NCBI RefSeq assembly: GCF_018698455.1
Contig: NZ_JABIOQ010000007.1
Span: forward strand, 1-40,553
DNA: 40,553 bases
Direction: 5' to 3'
From: Sulfurimonas sp.
GTDB lineage: Bacteria > Campylobacterota > Campylobacteria > Campylobacterales > Sulfurimonadaceae
Part shown: piece by piece, positions 29,327 to 37,184 of the stretch
Position numbering within the stretch: the stretch's first letter is position 1
Layout of the letters: every line of letters begins with the position of its first letter
Notes under the pieces: generated by a model
What the model saw: only the letters and a program-made list of their open reading frames with translations
What the model was told of the DNA's origin: nothing
The model's database searches: none
Position numbers and translations under genes: made by a program

Positions 29327-30070
29327 TTGGCAGCAAAATATATAATTCTAGACACAGAAACAACAGGCACAGGAGACAATGACCGCGTTATACAATTAGG
29401 TTATATCGTTCTTGGTACTAAACCCATAGAAGTTCATAATGAATTCAACTCTACTGATGTTCCAATAAATTTTGGGGCAATGGAAGTGCATGGAATTACT
29501 CCGGACTTACTTGAAGGAAAACCTGAGTGTACGGAGACTTCTGCATATAAAAGGCTCCTCGATCTCAATAATAACGAAAATTATCTCATCATTCATAATG
29601 CACCATTTGATGTTAAAATGCTTCAAAAAGAGGGCTTTACTCCCCAAATGAAGATTATAGATACACTGAGAGTAGCAAAACATATACTTCCAGATGAAGA
29701 TGCTCACAGACTTCAATATTTTAGATATAAAATGGAACTATACAAAGAAGAAGAGAAAGAAGCAGCAGCTCTTGGTGTAGTTGTAAAGGCTCATGATGCG
29801 ATAGGTGATGTTCTTGTTCTAAAGTTACTCCTTTCAAAACTAAAAGAGAGCGTTACTCTACTTTATCCTAGAGAAAATCCAGTGGAAAAAATGGTCGACC
29901 TTACTAGTACACCTATATTAGTCAAAACATTTAGGTTTGGAAAACATAAGGGAAAAGAGTTAGTCGAAGTAGCGAGAGAAGATGCTGGCTACCTAAGATG
30001 GATGCTAAGCTCCATGGATAACCTCGATGATGACATGAAGTACTCTATAAATATTGCATTGGGTCAATAG
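29327..30070 (+). CDS. DEDDh 3'-5' exonuclease, ExoX-like
   Basis: A DnaQ-type exonuclease of 247 residues. Exo I is YIILDTETTGTG, Exo II the HNAPFDVKML region and Exo III HDAIGDVLVLKLL, giving the full DEDDh set. A C-terminal module of about 45 residues, FRFGKHKGKELVEVAREDAGYLRWML, is the ExoX-like C-terminal domain also found in small stand-alone proteins. It may process DNA ends or act in repair. The start is TTG (29327-29329) behind aaaaaaggc; no ATG is available before the first Exo motif. The end overlaps the convergent antiporter gene by 26 bases. Confidence 0.9.
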   Translation: MAAKYIILDTETTGTGDNDRVIQLGYIVLGTKPIEVHNEFNSTDVPINFGAMEVHGITPDLLEGKPECTETSAYKRLLDLNNNENYLIIHNAPFDVKMLQKEGFTPQMKIIDTLRVAKHILPDEDAHRLQYFRYKMELYKEEEKEAAALGVVVKAHDAIGDVLVLKLLLSKLKESVTLLYPRENPVEKMVDLTSTPILVKTFRFGKHKGKELVEVAREDAGYLRWMLSSMDNLDDDMKYSINIALGQ

Positions 30071-31382
30071 CAAAAATAATAAATAAACTTAATGCGATTA
30101 CTCCACTGATAAGTGCATAAGGTAGTTGTGTTTTCACATGATCCATCACTTCACAATCTGAAGCCATCGAAGAAATAATAGTAGTATCAGAAATAGGTGA
30201 ACAATGATCACCAAAGACACCTCCACTTATAACAGCTCCTATTGCTAAGGCTACATCAGTGTCCATACCTACTGCCATAGGAATGGCTATAGGTATCATA
30301 ATACTAAATGTTCCCCAAGATGTGCCTGTTGAAAATGACATCAAAGAACTTAGTAAAAAAATACTTCCTGCTAAAAAGTATGGATTTACATTCTCAGTAG
30401 CTAAAGTTGAAAGATAGACACCAGTTTTAAGTTCTCCTGTCACATTCCCGATTCCAAAGGCAAAGACTAATATAAATGAAATTGGAACAAAACTTTTTGC
30501 ACCTTTGTAAGCAGTACTACTCCACTCACGAAGGGATAAGTTCTTAGTACCCACATAGTAAAAAAGTATAAATACAAATGTACTTAACATAGTGTAAAAA
30601 ATAGAAGATGAACCACTTCCTTTGAGTATTTCACCATTACCCGTAATATATAAAAATACAAAGACTAAACTAACCATTAAAAAAATAGGTAAAAGCATAT
30701 AATACATACTTGAGGGTCGATGCTCTTTGTCTACATTTACTTTAGCTTTATAAACAGTTTCTTTCATAGCACCTATTTCAAAGTTGAAGTATATAAATGT
30801 AAATGTGACAATTAGTGCAGATATAGCATAGAAGTTATACATCAAAGAGTTTATTAAAAGTGTTGTTGAATTTTCCTGAATATATCCTTGAGATATTTGT
30901 GTATTTAACAATCCTAAAAGAAGTGCTCCGTAACCATTAAGTACTATAAGTGAGCCTATGGGTGCAGAAGTTGAGTCACATACAAAGGCTAACTTTTCAT
31001 GAGGTATTTTGTATTTATCGCAGAGTGGTTTTCCAACTGCTCCCGAAACAAGTGCTGTTATTGAAGTTTCAACAAATATAACAACACCTAAAATATAACT
31101 AACCATCAATGCTGAACGCTCAGATTTAATTATCTTTTTTTGATGTAACATGAAATTCACAAAACCATGTACTCCACCGCTCTTTTGAATAAGTGCCATA
31201 ATTGCACCTGCTAAAATAACAAAAGCCAAGGTTTTAAGTATCCATCCTTCACTTAGTAAAAAAGTAAAAAGAGTATATAAGGCTTCAAGTGATGCAAGAA
31301 CATCATAATTATTAAGTATGAAAAGACCGACACAAATACCACTAAACAAGGATACAATCACATTCTTTGTGTAAAGTGCCAA
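30045..31382 (-). CDS. NhaC-type Na+/H+ antiporter family protein
   Basis: A 445-residue inner-membrane protein with about eleven helices. It has the family signature GGVFGDHCSPISDTTIISSMAS near residue 400 and the paired FSTGTSWGTFSIMIPIAIPMA before it. The N-terminal GAIMALIQKSGGVHG matches the same family. NhaC-type proteins exchange Na+ for H+, or in some members malate/lactate or amines, so the substrate is not fixed. It may compensate for the decayed nhaA 4 kb away (inference). It lies 57 bases downstream of the GNAT gene. Confidence 0.88.
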   Translation of the reverse strand: MALYTKNVIVSLFSGICVGLFILNNYDVLASLEALYTLFTFLLSEGWILKTLAFVILAGAIMALIQKSGGVHGFVNFMLHQKKIIKSERSALMVSYILGVVIFVETSITALVSGAVGKPLCDKYKIPHEKLAFVCDSTSAPIGSLIVLNGYGALLLGLLNTQISQGYIQENSTTLLINSLMYNFYAISALIVTFTFIYFNFEIGAMKETVYKAKVNVDKEHRPSSMYYMLLPIFLMVSLVFVFLYITGNGEILKGSGSSSIFYTMLSTFVFILFYYVGTKNLSLREWSSTAYKGAKSFVPISFILVFAFGIGNVTGELKTGVYLSTLATENVNPYFLAGSIFLLSSLMSFSTGTSWGTFSIMIPIAIPMAVGMDTDVALAIGAVISGGVFGDHCSPISDTTIISSMASDCEVMDHVKTQLPYALISGVIALSLFIIFAIDPMQYL

Positions 31383-31439
31383 GACAATAGCAAGGAGAGA
31401 AGGGAGTAAAGATAATGCAGAGAGTTCTATAAATATTTC

Positions 31440-32060
31440 CTAAAACTCTAAGGACAGTAGTACAAGACCAGCACGTCCAAACTTTTCTTTATAAAGTTCA
31501 CACTCTAGTTGAGAGACTTCTTTAAATCCAAGTTTTGTATAAAATAATTTTGCATCTAGAGAGCCTATTTCTATCATTGTTTGTGCGATTCTATAGCCTT
31601 TTAATCGTGCTGTTAAAAGTGATTTTTGCATCAATTCTTTTAAAATTCCTACATCTATAAAACCCTCAAGTTCTTCCATAAAGTCAAACATTAATGTTCT
31701 GTTATTTAAATTAAAATCACAACAGTACATAACAGAAAGAGCTTCATCCATTTCATCGACACCAATTTCTTGGAGTGCTTTTAAAAATGTTTCTTTAGTA
31801 GCTATTCTTGGTTCATAGCTACAAAGTGTTCCAACACTTTTCCCATCCATCTCTGCTATTAAAAAATTACTATAGTTACAGTGACTTTTTGCATTGGTAA
31901 CTGTTAGCTTTTCTAGATACTCTAAAATAACTTTATCATCGTTTGTTTTAAAAAGTAAATCGAAAAGACCATCTTTTTTTCCAGCACGTGAACTTTGTAA
32001 AATCATCTGTGCTAAAAATGAACTATCAATAACAGTAGCCTTACGTATTTTAATACCCAT
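31440..32060 (-). CDS. GNAT-family N-acetyltransferase
   Basis: About 206 residues with a GNAT fold. The beta1-alpha1 part is IRKATVIDSSFLAQMILQSS, the central strand FLIAEMDGKSVGTLCSYE, and the acetyl-CoA-binding helix region LLTARLKGYRIAQTMIEIGSLDAKLFYTKLGFKEV. The last motif (YxKLGF) is typical. The acceptor is unknown. I prefer ATG at 32058-32060. A TTG four codons upstream is in frame, with no better ribosome binding site. It is divergent from the L,D-transpeptidase gene and upstream of the antiporter gene. Confidence 0.8.
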   Translation of the reverse strand: MGIKIRKATVIDSSFLAQMILQSSRAGKKDGLFDLLFKTNDDKVILEYLEKLTVTNAKSHCNYSNFLIAEMDGKSVGTLCSYEPRIATKETFLKALQEIGVDEMDEALSVMYCCDFNLNNRTLMFDFMEELEGFIDVGILKELMQKSLLTARLKGYRIAQTMIEIGSLDAKLFYTKLGFKEVSQLECELYKEKFGRAGLVLLSLEF

Positions 32061-32088
32061 AATATTTTCCAATATTTAATTTAAATCA

Positions 32089-32094
32089 TATAAT
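32089..32094 (+). promoter_or_regulatory. -10 box of the L,D-transpeptidase gene
   Basis: TATAAT in atcatataatag, 19 bases before the ATG (32114), which leaves a leader of about 13 bases. Confidence 0.55.
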
Positions 32095-32113
32095 AGTAAT
32101 AGTACCATACTTT

Positions 32114-32785
32114 ATGATAAAAAGTTTCTTAATTTTACTAAATACCTCAATTTTACTATTTTCATCTCAACAAATACTTCTAGTTACTGCAGATGACTTC
32201 AACACGTCAAAAGCAAGCTTAAATTGTTATGAAGATGATAAACTAATTTTCTCTAATATAAAAGTGAATATTGGGAGGACGGGCTTAGCATGGGGGCTTG
32301 GGGACCATAGTATACAACATGACTCTAGAGAACCTATAAAATATGAAGGTGATGGGAAAGCCCCAATAGGTATCTTTAAGCTCACTGATATATTTGGATA
32401 CTCAAGTGTAAACAACTTTTCTTTACCCTATTTATATACATCAAAGGAACTTATCTGTGTTGATGACTCCAAATCAAACTTCTATAATCAAATCATTCAA
32501 GCACATGGAAATGAGAAAAGTTTTGAGTACATGAAACGCAAAGACTCACAATATACTTTAGGTGTGGTTATAGGGCATAATGGACAAGCTATTTCAAGAC
32601 GAGGTTCTTGTATATTTTTACATGTTCAAAAAGAGGAAGGTGCATCAACGGCTGGTTGCACATCGATGAAATATGGTGATTTAAAAAAGATAGTTAACTG
32701 GTTAGATAAAAAGAAAAAACCTCTTTTAATACAAGTACCAAAAAAGTATCTCCAAGAAGTGAAAGAACTTATTAAAAAGTTCTAG
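32114..32785 (+). CDS. L,D-transpeptidase (YkuD domain)
   Basis: A secreted or membrane-anchored enzyme of 223 residues. A signal segment covers about 1-20. The YkuD active site is HVQKEEGASTAGC with His170 and nucleophile Cys182, followed by TSMKYGDLKKIVNWL. Upstream GDGKAPIGIFKLTDIFGY is also typical. Such enzymes make meso-DAP cross-links in peptidoglycan, attach lipoproteins or trim stem peptides; in curved Campylobacterota related enzymes help set cell shape (family knowledge). It stands alone with its own promoter and fits the wall-turnover theme of the region. Confidence 0.9.
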   Translation: MIKSFLILLNTSILLFSSQQILLVTADDFNTSKASLNCYEDDKLIFSNIKVNIGRTGLAWGLGDHSIQHDSREPIKYEGDGKAPIGIFKLTDIFGYSSVNNFSLPYLYTSKELICVDDSKSNFYNQIIQAHGNEKSFEYMKRKDSQYTLGVVIGHNGQAISRRGSCIFLHVQKEEGASTAGCTSMKYGDLKKIVNWLDKKKKPLLIQVPKKYLQEVKELIKKF

Positions 32786-33035: not shown

Positions 33036-33041
33036 TATAAT
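33036..33041 (+). promoter_or_regulatory. -10 box of the lipoprotein/FadL-like locus
   Basis: TATAAT after a run of six T. The expected leader is about 53 bases, with AAGGA at 33091-33095 just before the ATG. Confidence 0.6.
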
Positions 33042-33100: not shown

Positions 33101-35500
33101 ATGTTACATTTAAAATCGTATGTTGGATCAGTTCTATTAGCAGCTCTTCTTTTACAAGGTTGTGGTTCAAGCGAATCAGAGAACACAACAGTTACTTCCA
33201 AGGTTTCTGCTTCAGTTATTCAAGCAGAAAATACTATTGATGCAATTAATGAAGCATTTGTAGGTTTAGATGAAAACTCAACACAAGAAGAAGTTGATGC
33301 AGCCACAAGAGAAGCAAAACTTTTAGCTAGTCAACCTGTTTCATCAACTCAAACTGCTACACAGACAGCTGGTTTATTTTCTAAAATTACTGATAAAGTT
33401 AAAGATAAAGTTAAAGATGGTCTTGTAAAAGTACTAGATACAAAACTTGGTGACAAAGTTACAACTGCTGCTTTTGATGTTGTACTTAACTCCGAGGGTG
33501 TTACTGTTGTTATGCTTGATTTAGCACGTAAGTCTGAGACAACTTCACAAATCATGATTAACTCTATGGAAGCAGACTGGGGTTTAGCTGAAAAAATGTG
33601 TCCTATGCTTCGCGGGAGTACAGAGTTTGGTGAAAAATTTACTGCACTTGCAGAAGAACGTGACATCATAGGTCGTTTCTTCTTTGAAAGAATAGACGCA
33701 AATATGTACGGCTGTTTAACAGATGCCATGCTTCTTTCAAACAATGATGCTGTACATGATGGAAGTGTTTCACACTCTACAAATGCATATATGGGTCTTT
33801 TAATGGATCGTTATGCAAATGACTACTTCATTACTCCAACTGGTTCAACAGCTGTGCGTCGTGCTGATAAGTTTGTTTCTTTACTTTTAAACACAGGTGC
33901 TAATGCAACTTATGATGCAAATACTAAGACTTTTACAGGTCATGGTGATGCAAATGAACTTATAAATGAAAAATTCTTCTACTCACTTTTCAAAACACCA
34001 GAAACAACAGACTCTTTTGTCTCTGCAATGGATAAAGTAAAATCAGCTGATGCAGCTAATGGAACTAATACACTTACTATGCTTATGGACAACATCTTTC
34101 TTGGCAAACCAAATGGTGCTGGTGAAGCTGATACTATACAAGGTTACTTAAACATAATCGCTATAGGTTCTGGTATGTATGATGGAATTTATGGCGAAGC
34201 TAATGCTGAAGGTACTCGTTCTGGTGCTTATGGTTTTGGTGCTTACTCTGGAGCATTTATTGGTTTTGCAGGTCTTATTCCATCTGATCGTTACATGACT
34301 TATGCTAGAGCATTTATGAATGCTGGCTATAAGTATGCTGAATTTCATGGTATAAATGTTTGGGGTACTGCACTTGATAGTGCAACTACTGTTGCTCAAG
34401 CTGCATGGGATGCTTATACTGCTCCAACTGATGTAGCAGCAACTCCTTCTCCTGCTCGTTCAGCTGGTTTAGGGCTTACAGGTTCAGACTGGTATGATGA
34501 TATTTTTGACCTTATGCTTAGTGCATGGTCAAGTGTAAGTCTTGCAGACCTTAGTTCCGCACTATTAAGTAGTGATCAATCTGTTATGGCTGAGTTAACT
34601 GATCAAGGTAATACTGCATACTCAATTTTTGTAGATGGTCGTAATGCTGATGGAAGTAAAAATGAAGCTTATATGACTACAATTACTAATCCTAATTATA
34701 TTCCATCGACTCAAGATGGAATAGAAAATGACAATGTCTATGGGATACATGGTCTCATTGAATTAGCTATGCAAGAAGATATTTTTTATGTTACTTGCGG
34801 TAGTAGTGCAACTGATATAACTACCTCTTTTGAAAATTCACTTGGATACACTTGTGATAACAATGTAAGTTACACTATGGCTCATGCTAAAGCTGCGTTT
34901 ACTTTACCAGCATTTAACGAACTTACTTGGGAATTTGCTTACGGTACTGCAACTAATGGTGCAATGGCTTACTATGATAACAATGTTGATGCTAATTGGC
35001 TCGCTGACTTAAGTTCAAATGAACTAGTTCGTGAATACTTTTATCCATCTGCTAAAAATATTTATATTCCGAACTGGTTGCTCGCTGTTGATTGGCTAAG
35101 TGCCCCTGCAAACTTTAAAAATACAAATGTTGCTAAAACTAACTTTGACTTTAATGCTGGGTACTTTGATATCTATGTAACTTCAATAAATGAGACTCTG
35201 TTTCATGTTACTGATGAAAACAATGTAACAACAACTGGCGACATTGATTTAGTTACGGTTGCTGGTACTGTTAAAACTATTGAAATATCTAAAGTTGATA
35301 TGGGTAACGATGATATTATCGCTGTTGATGAAGATGGTCTTGATATTACTGGTCTTAATGTTTATAAAATCCGTGCTATTACACCAGAAGATACTCAAGC
35401 TCTTATGAACTACCTATCAGATCTAAGTGATAGTGCATTAAGTGCTATCGGACTTGACTCTTCAAACACTGCTAATGTAGATACTACGGTAGCACCGTAA
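33101..35500 (+). CDS. Large lipoprotein of unknown function
   Basis: A 799-residue protein with a lipoprotein signal: Lys5, a hydrophobic core and a lipobox ending Gln-Gly-Cys21. It should be lipidated and placed in an outer-membrane leaflet. After a Ser/Thr-rich linker and a Lys/Asp amphipathic helix (ITDKVKDKVKDGLVKVL), most of the chain is a helical, Ala/Tyr-rich globular region. Examples are GAYGFGAYSGAFIGFAG and AEFHGINVWGTALDSATTVA. A shorter beta-rich C-terminal region starts near 680 (FDIYVTSINETLFHV). Four further Cys occur in two neighbouring pairs and could form disulfides. I recognise no family. The adjacent FadL-like gene suggests a joint role with a hydrophobic substrate (inference). 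Confidence 0.9.
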   Translation: MLHLKSYVGSVLLAALLLQGCGSSESENTTVTSKVSASVIQAENTIDAINEAFVGLDENSTQEEVDAATREAKLLASQPVSSTQTATQTAGLFSKITDKVKDKVKDGLVKVLDTKLGDKVTTAAFDVVLNSEGVTVVMLDLARKSETTSQIMINSMEADWGLAEKMCPMLRGSTEFGEKFTALAEERDIIGRFFFERIDANMYGCLTDAMLLSNNDAVHDGSVSHSTNAYMGLLMDRYANDYFITPTGSTAVRRADKFVSLLLNTGANATYDANTKTFTGHGDANELINEKFFYSLFKTPETTDSFVSAMDKVKSADAANGTNTLTMLMDNIFLGKPNGAGEADTIQGYLNIIAIGSGMYDGIYGEANAEGTRSGAYGFGAYSGAFIGFAGLIPSDRYMTYARAFMNAGYKYAEFHGINVWGTALDSATTVAQAAWDAYTAPTDVAATPSPARSAGLGLTGSDWYDDIFDLMLSAWSSVSLADLSSALLSSDQSVMAELTDQGNTAYSIFVDGRNADGSKNEAYMTTITNPNYIPSTQDGIENDNVYGIHGLIELAMQEDIFYVTCGSSATDITTSFENSLGYTCDNNVSYTMAHAKAAFTLPAFNELTWEFAYGTATNGAMAYYDNNVDANWLADLSSNELVREYFYPSAKNIYIPNWLLAVDWLSAPANFKNTNVAKTNFDFNAGYFDIYVTSINETLFHVTDENNVTTTGDIDLVTVAGTVKTIEISKVDMGNDDIIAVDEDGLDITGLNVYKIRAITPEDTQALMNYLSDLSDSALSAIGLDSSNTANVDTTVAP

Positions 35501-35527
35501 GTAGCTAATTCCTTATTCGCTTATATG

Positions 35528-35550
35528 TAAACCAGCTTTAAGCTGGTTTA
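35528..35550 (+). terminator. Hairpin between the lipoprotein and FadL-like genes
   Basis: A 10-bp stem, taaaccagct / agctggttta, with loop tta is followed by ctctacttt. The weak U-tract suggests partial read-through into the FadL-like gene, or attenuation. Confidence 0.6.
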
Positions 35551-35630
35551 CTCTACTTTACACTCTAAGAAATTTTTCTCTTAATATTCAGTAGAATTTT
35601 AATACAAAAATTTTCAACAATAGGCTTTAT

Positions 35631-37184
35631 ATGTTAAAAAAAACTCTTTTACTATCACTGTCTGCTACTTTACTGCTTGCCACAAACGGTGTTAACATGG
35701 TAGGTACTTCTACGGTTTCTCGTTCTATGGGTGGAACAGGTGTAGCCTTTTACTCTCATGCAACAGAAGCTATGCATAAAAATATCTCAATGCTTGGCGA
35801 CATAGAAAAAGATGAATTTCAGTTTGATATGACTATTTTTAGTGCCACAGTGAATTCAACTGTCTATGATAAAATGCCACTCAATGCAAATCTAGTGCTT
35901 CCAAATCTCCCTAGTTACGACAATCCAATAACAGCGACAAGTGCAAATATGTTCGATACTAACTTCATACCATCAATGACTTATGCAACTCGTATATTTG
36001 ATGAACTAGTATTTGGATTTGCAATTATAGGAGCTGCTGGTATGGCAACACAGTATGAGGGTGAGTATTCACAGCGTCAGTTAAACTCTTCAATGTTACT
36101 TATGAAAATAATTCCAGGTTTTTCGTATAGACAAGGTAATACAACCTTTGGTTTTGCACCCGTTTTAGGTCTTGGTTCTTTAAGCTTAAATTATGATGAT
36201 CGTTACCTAGATGAAAGTGGTAATTCTTATGATTATGGTACAAAACCACAATCACAGCGTGAGGGTATATTTGGAACTAATGTTGGAGGAAGTGAATTAG
36301 AATCCGCTATTGGCTATACTGTTGGAATGGATGTCAAAGTAACTCCAAAACTACGTATAGGTGCAACTTATAACTCTGCTTTAAAAAATACCTATAGAGA
36401 AGTTGCAAATTTTTCGCAGTTTGGACCAAATGGAATGGTCTACATGGCTGATGAATGGATGAGAAATAATACAGGAGCAGGACTAACAACAGGTGATGTC
36501 AGTACTATTGGTGTTCAATTAATGGATAATGTAGCCTTTTCAACTATTCCAAATGCACAGGATATAGCAGATACTATTCAAAAACTTTCTGGAGCTGGTA
36601 GTATTACAGATGCACTTGCTGCAACGAATCCAGATCACCGAGATGATTTAACAATGGAACAGCCTTGGGAAATAGCAGTTGGCTTCGCTTATGATATATC
36701 TAATAAAATGGTTGTGACATTTGATTATCGTTATATTGCATGGGGAACGGCTGAAGGTTATAGAGATTTTGGCTGGGATAGCCAACATGTTTATGCTTTT
36801 GGTATGCAACACACAGGAAAAGATTATGTCCTACGTGCAGGTTATTCCTATGCTGATTCACCTATCCCAAATACTACTGATGAATTTGGAGCAGTCTTGA
36901 CAGATGTGCAAGGTACACTTGTATTTAAACAGGCAGTTTCTATGTTAAATATGGTAGGGTTTCCTGCTATTTCAACCACACATTTTAGTGTTGGTGGAGG
37001 TTATGCCTTTGATGAAGATATAGATTTTGACCTTGCCATGATGTACTCGCCAACAGCAACTGCAACTCGCTCTGGTTCACTAAATCCAGTTGAACTAGGA
37101 TTTGAAGCTGTAGATATGCCTTATGAATATCAAACAACTATGCAACAACTAAGCCTCTCTTTTGGTATTAACTATAAGTTCTAA
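35631..37184 (+). CDS. FadL/OmpP1-family outer membrane protein
   Basis: A 517-residue beta-barrel with a signal peptide (about 1-18). The FadL-type N-terminal hatch reads NMVGTSTVSRSMGGTGVAF. The usual Asn-Pro-Ala of that segment appears as Asn-Ile-Ser (HKNISML). The barrel has the family's segments PWEIAVGFAYDI, FDYRYIAWG, YVLRAGYSYADSPIP and HFSVGGGYAFDEDIDFDLAMMY, ending SFGINYKF with C-terminal Phe. FadL proteins pass long-chain fatty acids or other hydrophobic compounds across the outer membrane. It lies 130 bases downstream of the lipoprotein gene with a hairpin between. The lost Asn-Pro-Ala and the lipoprotein partner make the substrate uncertain. Confidence 0.88.
   Translation: MLKKTLLLSLSATLLLATNGVNMVGTSTVSRSMGGTGVAFYSHATEAMHKNISMLGDIEKDEFQFDMTIFSATVNSTVYDKMPLNANLVLPNLPSYDNPITATSANMFDTNFIPSMTYATRIFDELVFGFAIIGAAGMATQYEGEYSQRQLNSSMLLMKIIPGFSYRQGNTTFGFAPVLGLGSLSLNYDDRYLDESGNSYDYGTKPQSQREGIFGTNVGGSELESAIGYTVGMDVKVTPKLRIGATYNSALKNTYREVANFSQFGPNGMVYMADEWMRNNTGAGLTTGDVSTIGVQLMDNVAFSTIPNAQDIADTIQKLSGAGSITDALAATNPDHRDDLTMEQPWEIAVGFAYDISNKMVVTFDYRYIAWGTAEGYRDFGWDSQHVYAFGMQHTGKDYVLRAGYSYADSPIPNTTDEFGAVLTDVQGTLVFKQAVSMLNMVGFPAISTTHFSVGGGYAFDEDIDFDLAMMYSPTATATRSGSLNPVELGFEAVDMPYEYQTTMQQLSLSFGINYKF

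What the first reader, a model, noticed from the sequence alone, without database searches (positions are those of the whole stretch)
33101..37184. Large unknown lipoprotein paired with a FadL-like barrel
A 799-residue lipoprotein with no recognised domain is followed by a FadL-family barrel whose hatch has Asn-Ile-Ser for Asn-Pro-Ala. Both are outer-membrane bound, share a direction and are separated by a leaky-looking hairpin. FadL proteins normally act without a lipoprotein. The pair could be a two-part uptake or export route for hydrophobic compounds, and it is the strongest candidate here for an undescribed system.
Basis: partly seen in the sequence, partly recalled or inferred. Interest (0 to 1): 0.7.

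Follow-up and report, generated by a model that had tools for sequence, protein, structure and literature searches.

The report
Lipoprotein-capped FadL channel gene pair
A few sulfur bacteria carry a large lipoprotein of unknown type beside an unusual FadL-type outer-membrane channel, probably a two-part gate for greasy molecules, usually next to an efflux pump that this genome lacks.

Summary
Window 33101-35500 encodes a 799-aa lipoprotein (LIPO) with no recognised domain; 35631-37184 encodes a FadL-family barrel (FADL) with Asn-Ile-Ser for Asn-Pro-Ala. The pair is real: LIPO is rare (6 of 135 genus genomes plus one other Campylobacterales MAG), yet FADL adjoins it in all 7 (in one, inferred across a contig break); one extra LIPO copy has no FADL downstream. 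LIPO-linked FADLs are a class of their own: 194-202 residues in extracellular loops against 74-128 in 10 other FadLs, with unchanged periplasmic turns, which hints at a surface partner. In 6 of 7 carriers a TolC-adaptor-RND pump follows. The window genome differs: pair at another site, pump not found, but genes for every step of beta-oxidation present. The reading as a two-part route for hydrophobic compounds is the best one but untested; LIPO could not be folded reliably. That FadL proteins act without such partners is too strong a claim: AupA/AupB, VolA/FadL and BamG/BamH are precedents. New variant of a known kind.

The parts
33036..33041 (+). TATAAT, possible -10 box of the lipoprotein gene
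   Evidence: Present in 5 of 6 aligned upstream regions. The sigma-70 scan, which also asks for a -35 hexamer, does not list it; no transcription data.
33101..35500 (+). LIPO: 799-aa lipoprotein of unknown fold (lipobox Cys21; variable stretch about 26-100; conserved body after it; Cys167/Cys205 and Cys566/Cys585 as possible disulfides)
   Evidence: no domain; the first Cys pair is replaced at both positions in the Dive96 relative (L002) and kept in 4 of 5, the second kept in 5 of 5.
35527..35551 (+). Hairpin between the two genes, 11 pairs, followed by a weak T-rich stretch
   Evidence: hairpins of differing sequence in 7 of 7 intergenic regions.
35631..37184 (+). FADL: 517-aa FadL-family barrel with NIS hatch motif and long extracellular loops
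   Evidence: Toluene_X 54.9 bits; model of pLDDT 54.1 closest to FadL/TodX, Z 29.6; loop lengths.
29327..30070 (+). Exonuclease-like gene (name recalled, from no call) that lies directly upstream of LIPO in three relatives
   Evidence: Homologues 88.3, 84.5 and 82.0% identical lie upstream of LIPO in G479, G019 and G001.
30045..32785 (.). Na+/H+ antiporter-family gene (-), GNAT-like gene (-), YkuD gene (+): in relatives these lie beyond the RND gene; here the pair lies beyond them
   Evidence: GNAT hit is below its cut-off; order in G019 and G501.

Best explanation
LIPO and FADL form one outer-membrane unit that takes up hydrophobic small molecules. FADL is a FadL-type barrel that accepts a greasy ligand from outside and releases it sideways into the outer membrane (inferred from the family). 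LIPO, tethered by its lipid and a long variable linker, docks on the enlarged extracellular loops of FADL and acts as a receptor or lid that captures ligand from micelles, droplets or particles (inferred). In most carriers the unit shares a gene cluster with a tripartite RND pump that may expel the same class of compound (inferred); the window lineage keeps only the pair, at another site, and has beta-oxidation genes with which fatty acids or alkane-derived acids could be burned. Shown by sequence: the genes, their conserved adjacency, the pump in relatives and no close pump here, the fad genes. Shown on a modest model only: the loop enlargement. Inferred: surface location, physical complex, direction, ligand.
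For: FADL adjacent to LIPO in 7 of 7 carrier genomes, G001 by inference. In the 70 genomes a FADL of 60% or more identity occurs in 4 of 4 carriers and 0 of 66 others (carriers). Extracellular loops 194-202 residues in 5 linked barrels against 74-128 in 10 others, periplasmic turns 21-22 against 19-24. E. coli FadL, TodX, CymD and TbuX are the nearest solved folds. In FADL and LIPO trees G000 lies on the G018/G001 side (supports 1.000 and 0.989), in the antiporter tree with G479/G501 against G018 and G019 (1.000), so the two seem to have moved together. Genes for every beta-oxidation step in the window genome. Sulfurimonas isolates are reported to grow on C6-C12 alkanes (PMC7368058, abstract and passages).
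Against: LIPO has no reliable model (pLDDT 37.7), so docking is untested. A second LIPO copy in G018 has no FADL downstream. Acyl-CoA dehydrogenase was found in only 1 of 6 genus carriers, so catabolic uptake does not explain the other five. Six of seven carriers join the unit to an efflux-type pump, which suggests export or tolerance as readily as uptake. Strand assignment comes from a model of pLDDT 54.1 and from assuming a periplasmic C-terminus. The trees are small; three LIPO rows are partial; the direct grouping of G000 in the LIPO tree (with Dive96) has support 0.504; GNAT and YkuD trees resolve nothing (0.353, 0.491).
Confidence: 0.5

Rival explanations
1. LIPO faces the periplasm and carries hydrophobic compound from FADL to the inner membrane, as proposed for AupB in Marinobacter.
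For: AupA/AupB is the closest functional precedent: FadL-family barrel plus partner of unknown function, one operon, co-immunoprecipitation, needed for uptake of micellar hexadecane (PMC5989066, abstract, sections 9 and 12). LIPO's long variable linker could also reach across the periplasm.
Against: The enlarged part of FADL is outside, not periplasmic. Gene order is reversed and the gap is 130 nt, against 11 nt. AupB's sequence was not at hand, so homology is untested.
Confidence: 0.2
2. The pair belongs to an export or tolerance system: the RND pump expels hydrophobic toxins or exports a lipid, and LIPO, FADL and the third lipoprotein are outer-membrane accessories.
For: TolC, adaptor and RND follow the pair in 6 of 7 carriers; within the genus the close TolC (70% or more) occurs in 5 carriers and in none of the other 130 genomes.
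Against: The window genome keeps the pair without a close pump: best RND 24% identical, no TolC at 1e-60, no third lipoprotein while 5 carriers match in the same search. A pump with its own TolC should need no FadL barrel.
Confidence: 0.2
3. FADL is not a transporter but a scaffold that holds LIPO at the surface, for outer-membrane protein biogenesis or adhesion, as BamG holds BamH.
For: BamG is a FadL-family barrel whose outer strands anchor the surface lipoprotein BamH (PMC12611786, passages); NCBIfam BamG is a weak hit (3.2e-05).
Against: 23.2 bits against BamG's cut-off of 250; structure match nearer to FadL (Z 29.6) than to BamG (25.7); found in a few species only, unlike a core BAM subunit.
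Confidence: 0.06
4. Two unrelated neighbours; adjacency is accidental.
For: A stable hairpin separates them, so expression may be uneven; one LIPO copy lacks FADL.
Against: 7 of 7 adjacency, down to 50.3% (LIPO) and 53.7% (FADL) identity, in at least three genomic settings: beside the exonuclease-like gene, between YkuD and argS, and in L002.
Confidence: 0.04

Closest known systems
AupA/AupB of Marinobacter hydrocarbonoclasticus (PMC5989066)
   Same: FadL-family outer-membrane barrel beside a partner annotated as of unknown function, same direction, one uptake process.
   Different: AupB sediments mostly with the inner membrane and the word lipoprotein does not occur in that text; barrel gene first as named, 11-nt gap; marine alkane degraders. 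Sequence relation untested.
VolA (vca0863) beside the FadL homologue vca0862, Vibrio cholerae
   Same: Surface lipoprotein coded next to a FadL homologue (adjacency inferred from consecutive locus numbers, PMC9496633 passages; 'lipoprotein' from cited titles).
   Different: VolA is a lysophospholipase; LIPO has no lipase family hit and no GxSxG in 5 of 5 sequences. The same paper finds no through-channel in vca0862 by docking, so that partnership is itself uncertain.
BamG/BamH of Bacteroidota (PMC12611786)
   Same: FadL-family barrel whose extended outer strands anchor a surface lipoprotein: the physical arrangement proposed here.
   Different: Part of the BAM machine, with an extended N-tail; FADL is far below the BamG cut-off.
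FadL, TodX, CymD channels
   Same: Family domain and fold.
   Different: No NPA in the hatch; about 65-130 more residues in extracellular loops than the 10 FadLs compared; a lipoprotein neighbour.

Membership tests
FadL family (Toluene_X, OMPP1/FadL/TodX) | Match to PF03349 over the curated cut-off | tested here: met
   54.9 bits against 29.7.
FadL family (Toluene_X, OMPP1/FadL/TodX) | FadL barrel fold | tested here: met
   Model (pLDDT 54.1) aligns best to E. coli FadL: Z 29.6, 338 residues, rmsd 4.5; modest confidence, Foldseek TM 0.50-0.56.
FadL family (Toluene_X, OMPP1/FadL/TodX) | N-terminal hatch plugging the barrel, and lateral opening | tested here: inconclusive
   The segment aligns with the E. 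coli hatch, but residues 1-51 have pLDDT under 50; the lateral opening was not examined.
NPA-hatch FadL (E. coli type) | Asn-Pro-Ala in the hatch | tested here: not met
   NIS in the window; NVA or NIA in 4 linked relatives; NIS in G018.
AupA/AupB alkane-uptake pair | Partner homologous to AupB | not tested
   No AupB sequence was at hand.
AupA/AupB alkane-uptake pair | Barrel gene first, partner next, short gap | tested here: not met
   Lipoprotein first, 130-nt gap with hairpin.
AupA/AupB alkane-uptake pair | Partner at the inner membrane, bound to the barrel, required on alkanes | not testable with these tools
   Needs fractionation, pull-down and mutants.
VolA lipase paired with FadL | Lipase domain with GxSxG serine (motif recalled) | tested here: not met
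   No lipase model at E up to 1 and no GxSxG in 5 of 5.
BamG/BamH | BamG equivalog score | tested here: not met
   23.2 against 250 bits.
Tripartite RND efflux cluster | TolC, adaptor and RND permease beside the pair | tested here: not met
   Not beside the pair and no close copy in the window genome; present in 6 of 7 carriers.

The most novel reading that the evidence does not exclude
A lipoprotein-capped FadL gate, of a kind that my paper searches did not show described for Campylobacterota, evolved as a movable two-gene uptake unit and was coupled in most carriers to its own RND pump, giving sulfur oxidisers a combined intake-and-expulsion device for hydrocarbons, fatty acids or sulfur; the window lineage shows the intake half freed from the pump and joined to beta-oxidation.
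Probability: 0.25. Interest if true: 0.7.

Novelty: new variant of a known kind. Interest (0 to 1): 0.5.

Why it matters
How very hydrophobic molecules reach a FadL channel through water and lipopolysaccharide is poorly known, and so is how Sulfurimonas takes up the alkanes on which isolates are reported to grow (PMC7368058). A lipoprotein that travels with a FadL of enlarged outer loops, with a pump in most carriers and without one here, is a natural experiment that separates the intake part from the efflux part.

Tried and rejected
LIPO fold: AlphaFold2 on 4 rows gave pLDDT 37.7; not searched, as a poor model gives meaningless matches. Hits of LIPO to DUF3060, D-Ala-D-Ala ligase, EutP, spanin and an SRP receptor (E 0.67): below cut-off or near E 1, rejected. 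LIPO in plasmids: no match. FADL in plasmids: one Planctomyces record covering 22%, not followed. Weak LIPO-profile hits elsewhere (E about 1e-5 to 1e-3) cover only the N-terminus; one, an 857-aa protein of G261, is a phytase. They were dropped before carriers were counted: one search tallied 7 of 397, I count 1 (own); that sample held none of the other known carriers. One search tallied 9 of 135, I count 6. A 137-aa fragment at the edge of G000:C76 (E 5.1e-5) stays unexplained; in the genus it matches only itself and, weakly, G019's LIPO. Flanking repeats of a mobile element around the pair: none seen at the setting used. BAM and lipase readings weighed and put low. The hairpin as a strong terminator: the tail is weak; attenuation, processing or stabilising are open. 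Exonuclease-like gene tree: G000 does not group with G001, in line with the antiporter. Papers: a described pair of this kind was sought (and precedents in 11, 22; physiology in 79, 88); listings were capped (25 of 220, 15 of 16, 10 of 22, 10 of 84, 10 of 11); nothing of this kind in the rows shown beyond the precedents named. PMC10092268 only names a FadL in Nautilia (one passage).
Full report
What is there. The window lies in a Sulfurimonas-like genome (G000, 2.23 Mb, 98.1% complete; the genus is inferred from titles of matching public MAGs). LIPO (33101-35500) and FADL (35631-37184) are intact and co-directional. LIPO has a lipobox-like start, an almost unconserved stretch at about 26-100, and a conserved body. 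It reaches no cut-off in Pfam or NCBIfam and has no convincing solved relative by sequence. Of its cysteine pairs one is kept in 5 of 5 full-length sequences (window included), the other in 4 of 5 and replaced at both positions in the fifth, as expected of disulfides in an exported protein (inference). The residue after the lipid cysteine is Gly; by the E. coli +2 rule (recalled) that favours the outer membrane.

FADL. It is a FadL-family protein by domain and by a modest model whose best solved matches are E. coli FadL, TodX, CymD and TbuX, ahead of BamG and a type 9 translocon chain. By sequence alone the only PDB hit is CymD (E 0.0005). In an alignment with E. coli FadL and 9 unlinked Campylobacterota FadLs the NPA hatch reads NIS in the window and NVA or NIA in 4 linked relatives; G018's reads NIS. 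With the strands of the model, extracellular loops sum to 194-202 residues in 5 linked barrels and 74-128 in 10 others; periplasmic turns are 21-22 and 19-24. The largest addition is between strands 7 and 8 (67-80 against 9-27 residues); some outer loops (S3-S4, S9-S10) are not longer, and E. coli has a longer S5-S6. The net added mass is outside, where a surface lipoprotein could sit. This is the main argument for a surface partner; it rests on a model of pLDDT 54.1 and on the usual topology with the C-terminus in the periplasm.

How general the pair is. LIPO relatives: three loci; 4 of 99 relatives; 6 of 135 genus genomes at E below 1e-100 (G000, G001, G018, G019, G479, G501; the call tallied 9, three by short weak hits); in the phylum sample only the own genome of 397 (7 tallied, six by weak N-terminal hits), a sample without the other known carriers. 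L001 is the contig G479:C46 and L003 the contig G018:C267 by length. With the Campylobacterales MAG Dive96_bin10.281 (L002) there are 7 carriers. FADL is next to LIPO on one contig in 6 (in G018 and G501 LIPO is cut by the contig end); in G001 the first 110 residues of FADL follow LIPO at a contig end and the rest opens another contig. G018 has a second LIPO (C73, perhaps continued by C39) followed by a convergent gene and no FADL. In the 70 genomes a FADL of 60% or more occurs only in the 4 carriers sampled; 48 of the 70 have some match.

The larger cluster. In G018, G019, G479, G501, G001 (on the second contig) and L002 the pair is followed by a TolC-family protein, an RND adaptor and an AcrB-type RND permease. 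Pfam shows an ABC_sub_bind domain joined to the TolC domain in the two scanned (L001, L002); adaptor and permease families were scanned in L001, L002 and G019, the others are called by similarity. A second protein with a lipobox-like start, about 440 residues, lies between FADL and TolC in 5 of these 6, not in L002. Within the genus the TolC at 70% or more occurs in 5 carriers only (13 of 135 pass 1e-60, the other 8 at 24-30%). The window genome has no close copy: best RND 24%, no TolC at 1e-60, no third lipoprotein (in one search, 48 of 135 genomes match, the 5 carriers best).

Relocation. In G019 the order is exonuclease-like gene, LIPO, FADL, third lipoprotein, TolC, adaptor, RND, antiporter, GNAT-like, YkuD; in G501 YkuD is followed directly by argS. 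In the window the exonuclease-like gene abuts the antiporter, and LIPO-FADL lie between YkuD and argS. FADL of G000 groups with G018/G001 (support 1.000) and LIPO lies on that side (0.989), while the antiporter of G000 groups with G479/G501 against G018 and G019 (1.000); GNAT-like and YkuD trees resolve nothing. So the two genes probably moved together, by transfer or from a lost second copy; I cannot tell which, and the trees have 4 to 8 tips with partial rows.

Expression. TATAAT is found upstream of LIPO in 5 of 6 regions. Between the genes a hairpin is found in 7 of 7 regions with differing stems; in the window its T-tail is weak and terminator-like sites are hardly above chance.

Metabolic setting. 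G000 carries, on a contig of matching composition, an acyl-CoA ligase-like gene, a thiolase, a FadJ/FadB-type and a FadE-type gene in a row plus an acyltransferase/hydrolase protein (FadE-type and thiolase over NCBIfam cut-offs, ligase and FadJ by Pfam and best hits). PF00441 was found in 1 of the 6 genus carriers and rings in 9 of 14 control genomes (L002 not searched; how rare it is in the genus was not searched). Sulfurimonas isolates growing on C6-C12 alkanes are reported (PMC7368058, abstract and passages). In this genome an imported fatty acid or alkane product could be oxidised; in the other five that fails, and tolerance, membrane lipid or sulfur handling are open.

Known comparisons. 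AupA/AupB (PMC5989066: abstract, sections 9 and 12, passages), VolA beside vca0862 (PMC9496633, passages; PMC12208996, passages), BamG/BamH (PMC12611786, passages). That FadL proteins normally act alone is thus too strong. No test files LIPO-FADL into one of these pairs; it resembles a mixture of AupAB (uptake) and BamG/BamH (surface docking). In Thalassolituus a FadL homologue and an MMPL protein are induced on a long alkane (PMC6304351, passages), a loose parallel to FadL genes near exporters.

Verdict. Observation confirmed, interpretation partly supported, best reading at 0.5. New variant of a known kind: an undescribed lipoprotein family as far as the libraries searched show, a distinct FADL class and an unusual tie to an RND pump, but not a new principle until tested.

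Noticed in passing
L101:4695-14235 (G000:C28:59694-69234): Genes for every step of fatty-acid beta-oxidation in a row in a Sulfurimonas-like genome; acyl-CoA dehydrogenase not found in the 5 other genus carriers searched.
   Followed up: partly
L061:3097-9049 (G000:C29): Another FadL barrel (421 aa) of the same genome lies between a LolA-like protein and a 547-aa protein without domain, followed by an HAE3/MMPL-type RND protein: a second FadL-exporter neighbourhood.
   Followed up: partly
L051:9986-11302: The first 150 or so residues of the third lipoprotein recur in many larger proteins of the genus; 48 of 135 genomes match, the 5 carriers included.
   Followed up: no
L093:2-415 (G000:C76): 137-aa C-terminal fragment at a contig edge, weakly like the LIPO C-terminus (E 5.1e-5); possible distant paralogue.
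   Followed up: partly
L058, L059, L062, L064, L065, L066, L067: A short FadL is followed by a roughly 330-aa protein (the one scanned, in L058, hits DUF302) and a roughly 270-305-aa protein, in 5 of these 7 with a lipobox-like start: another FadL-lipoprotein neighbourhood.
   Followed up: no
L092 and L091 (G018:C39, C73): Second LIPO copy in G018 without FADL downstream, probably broken over two contigs.
   Followed up: partly
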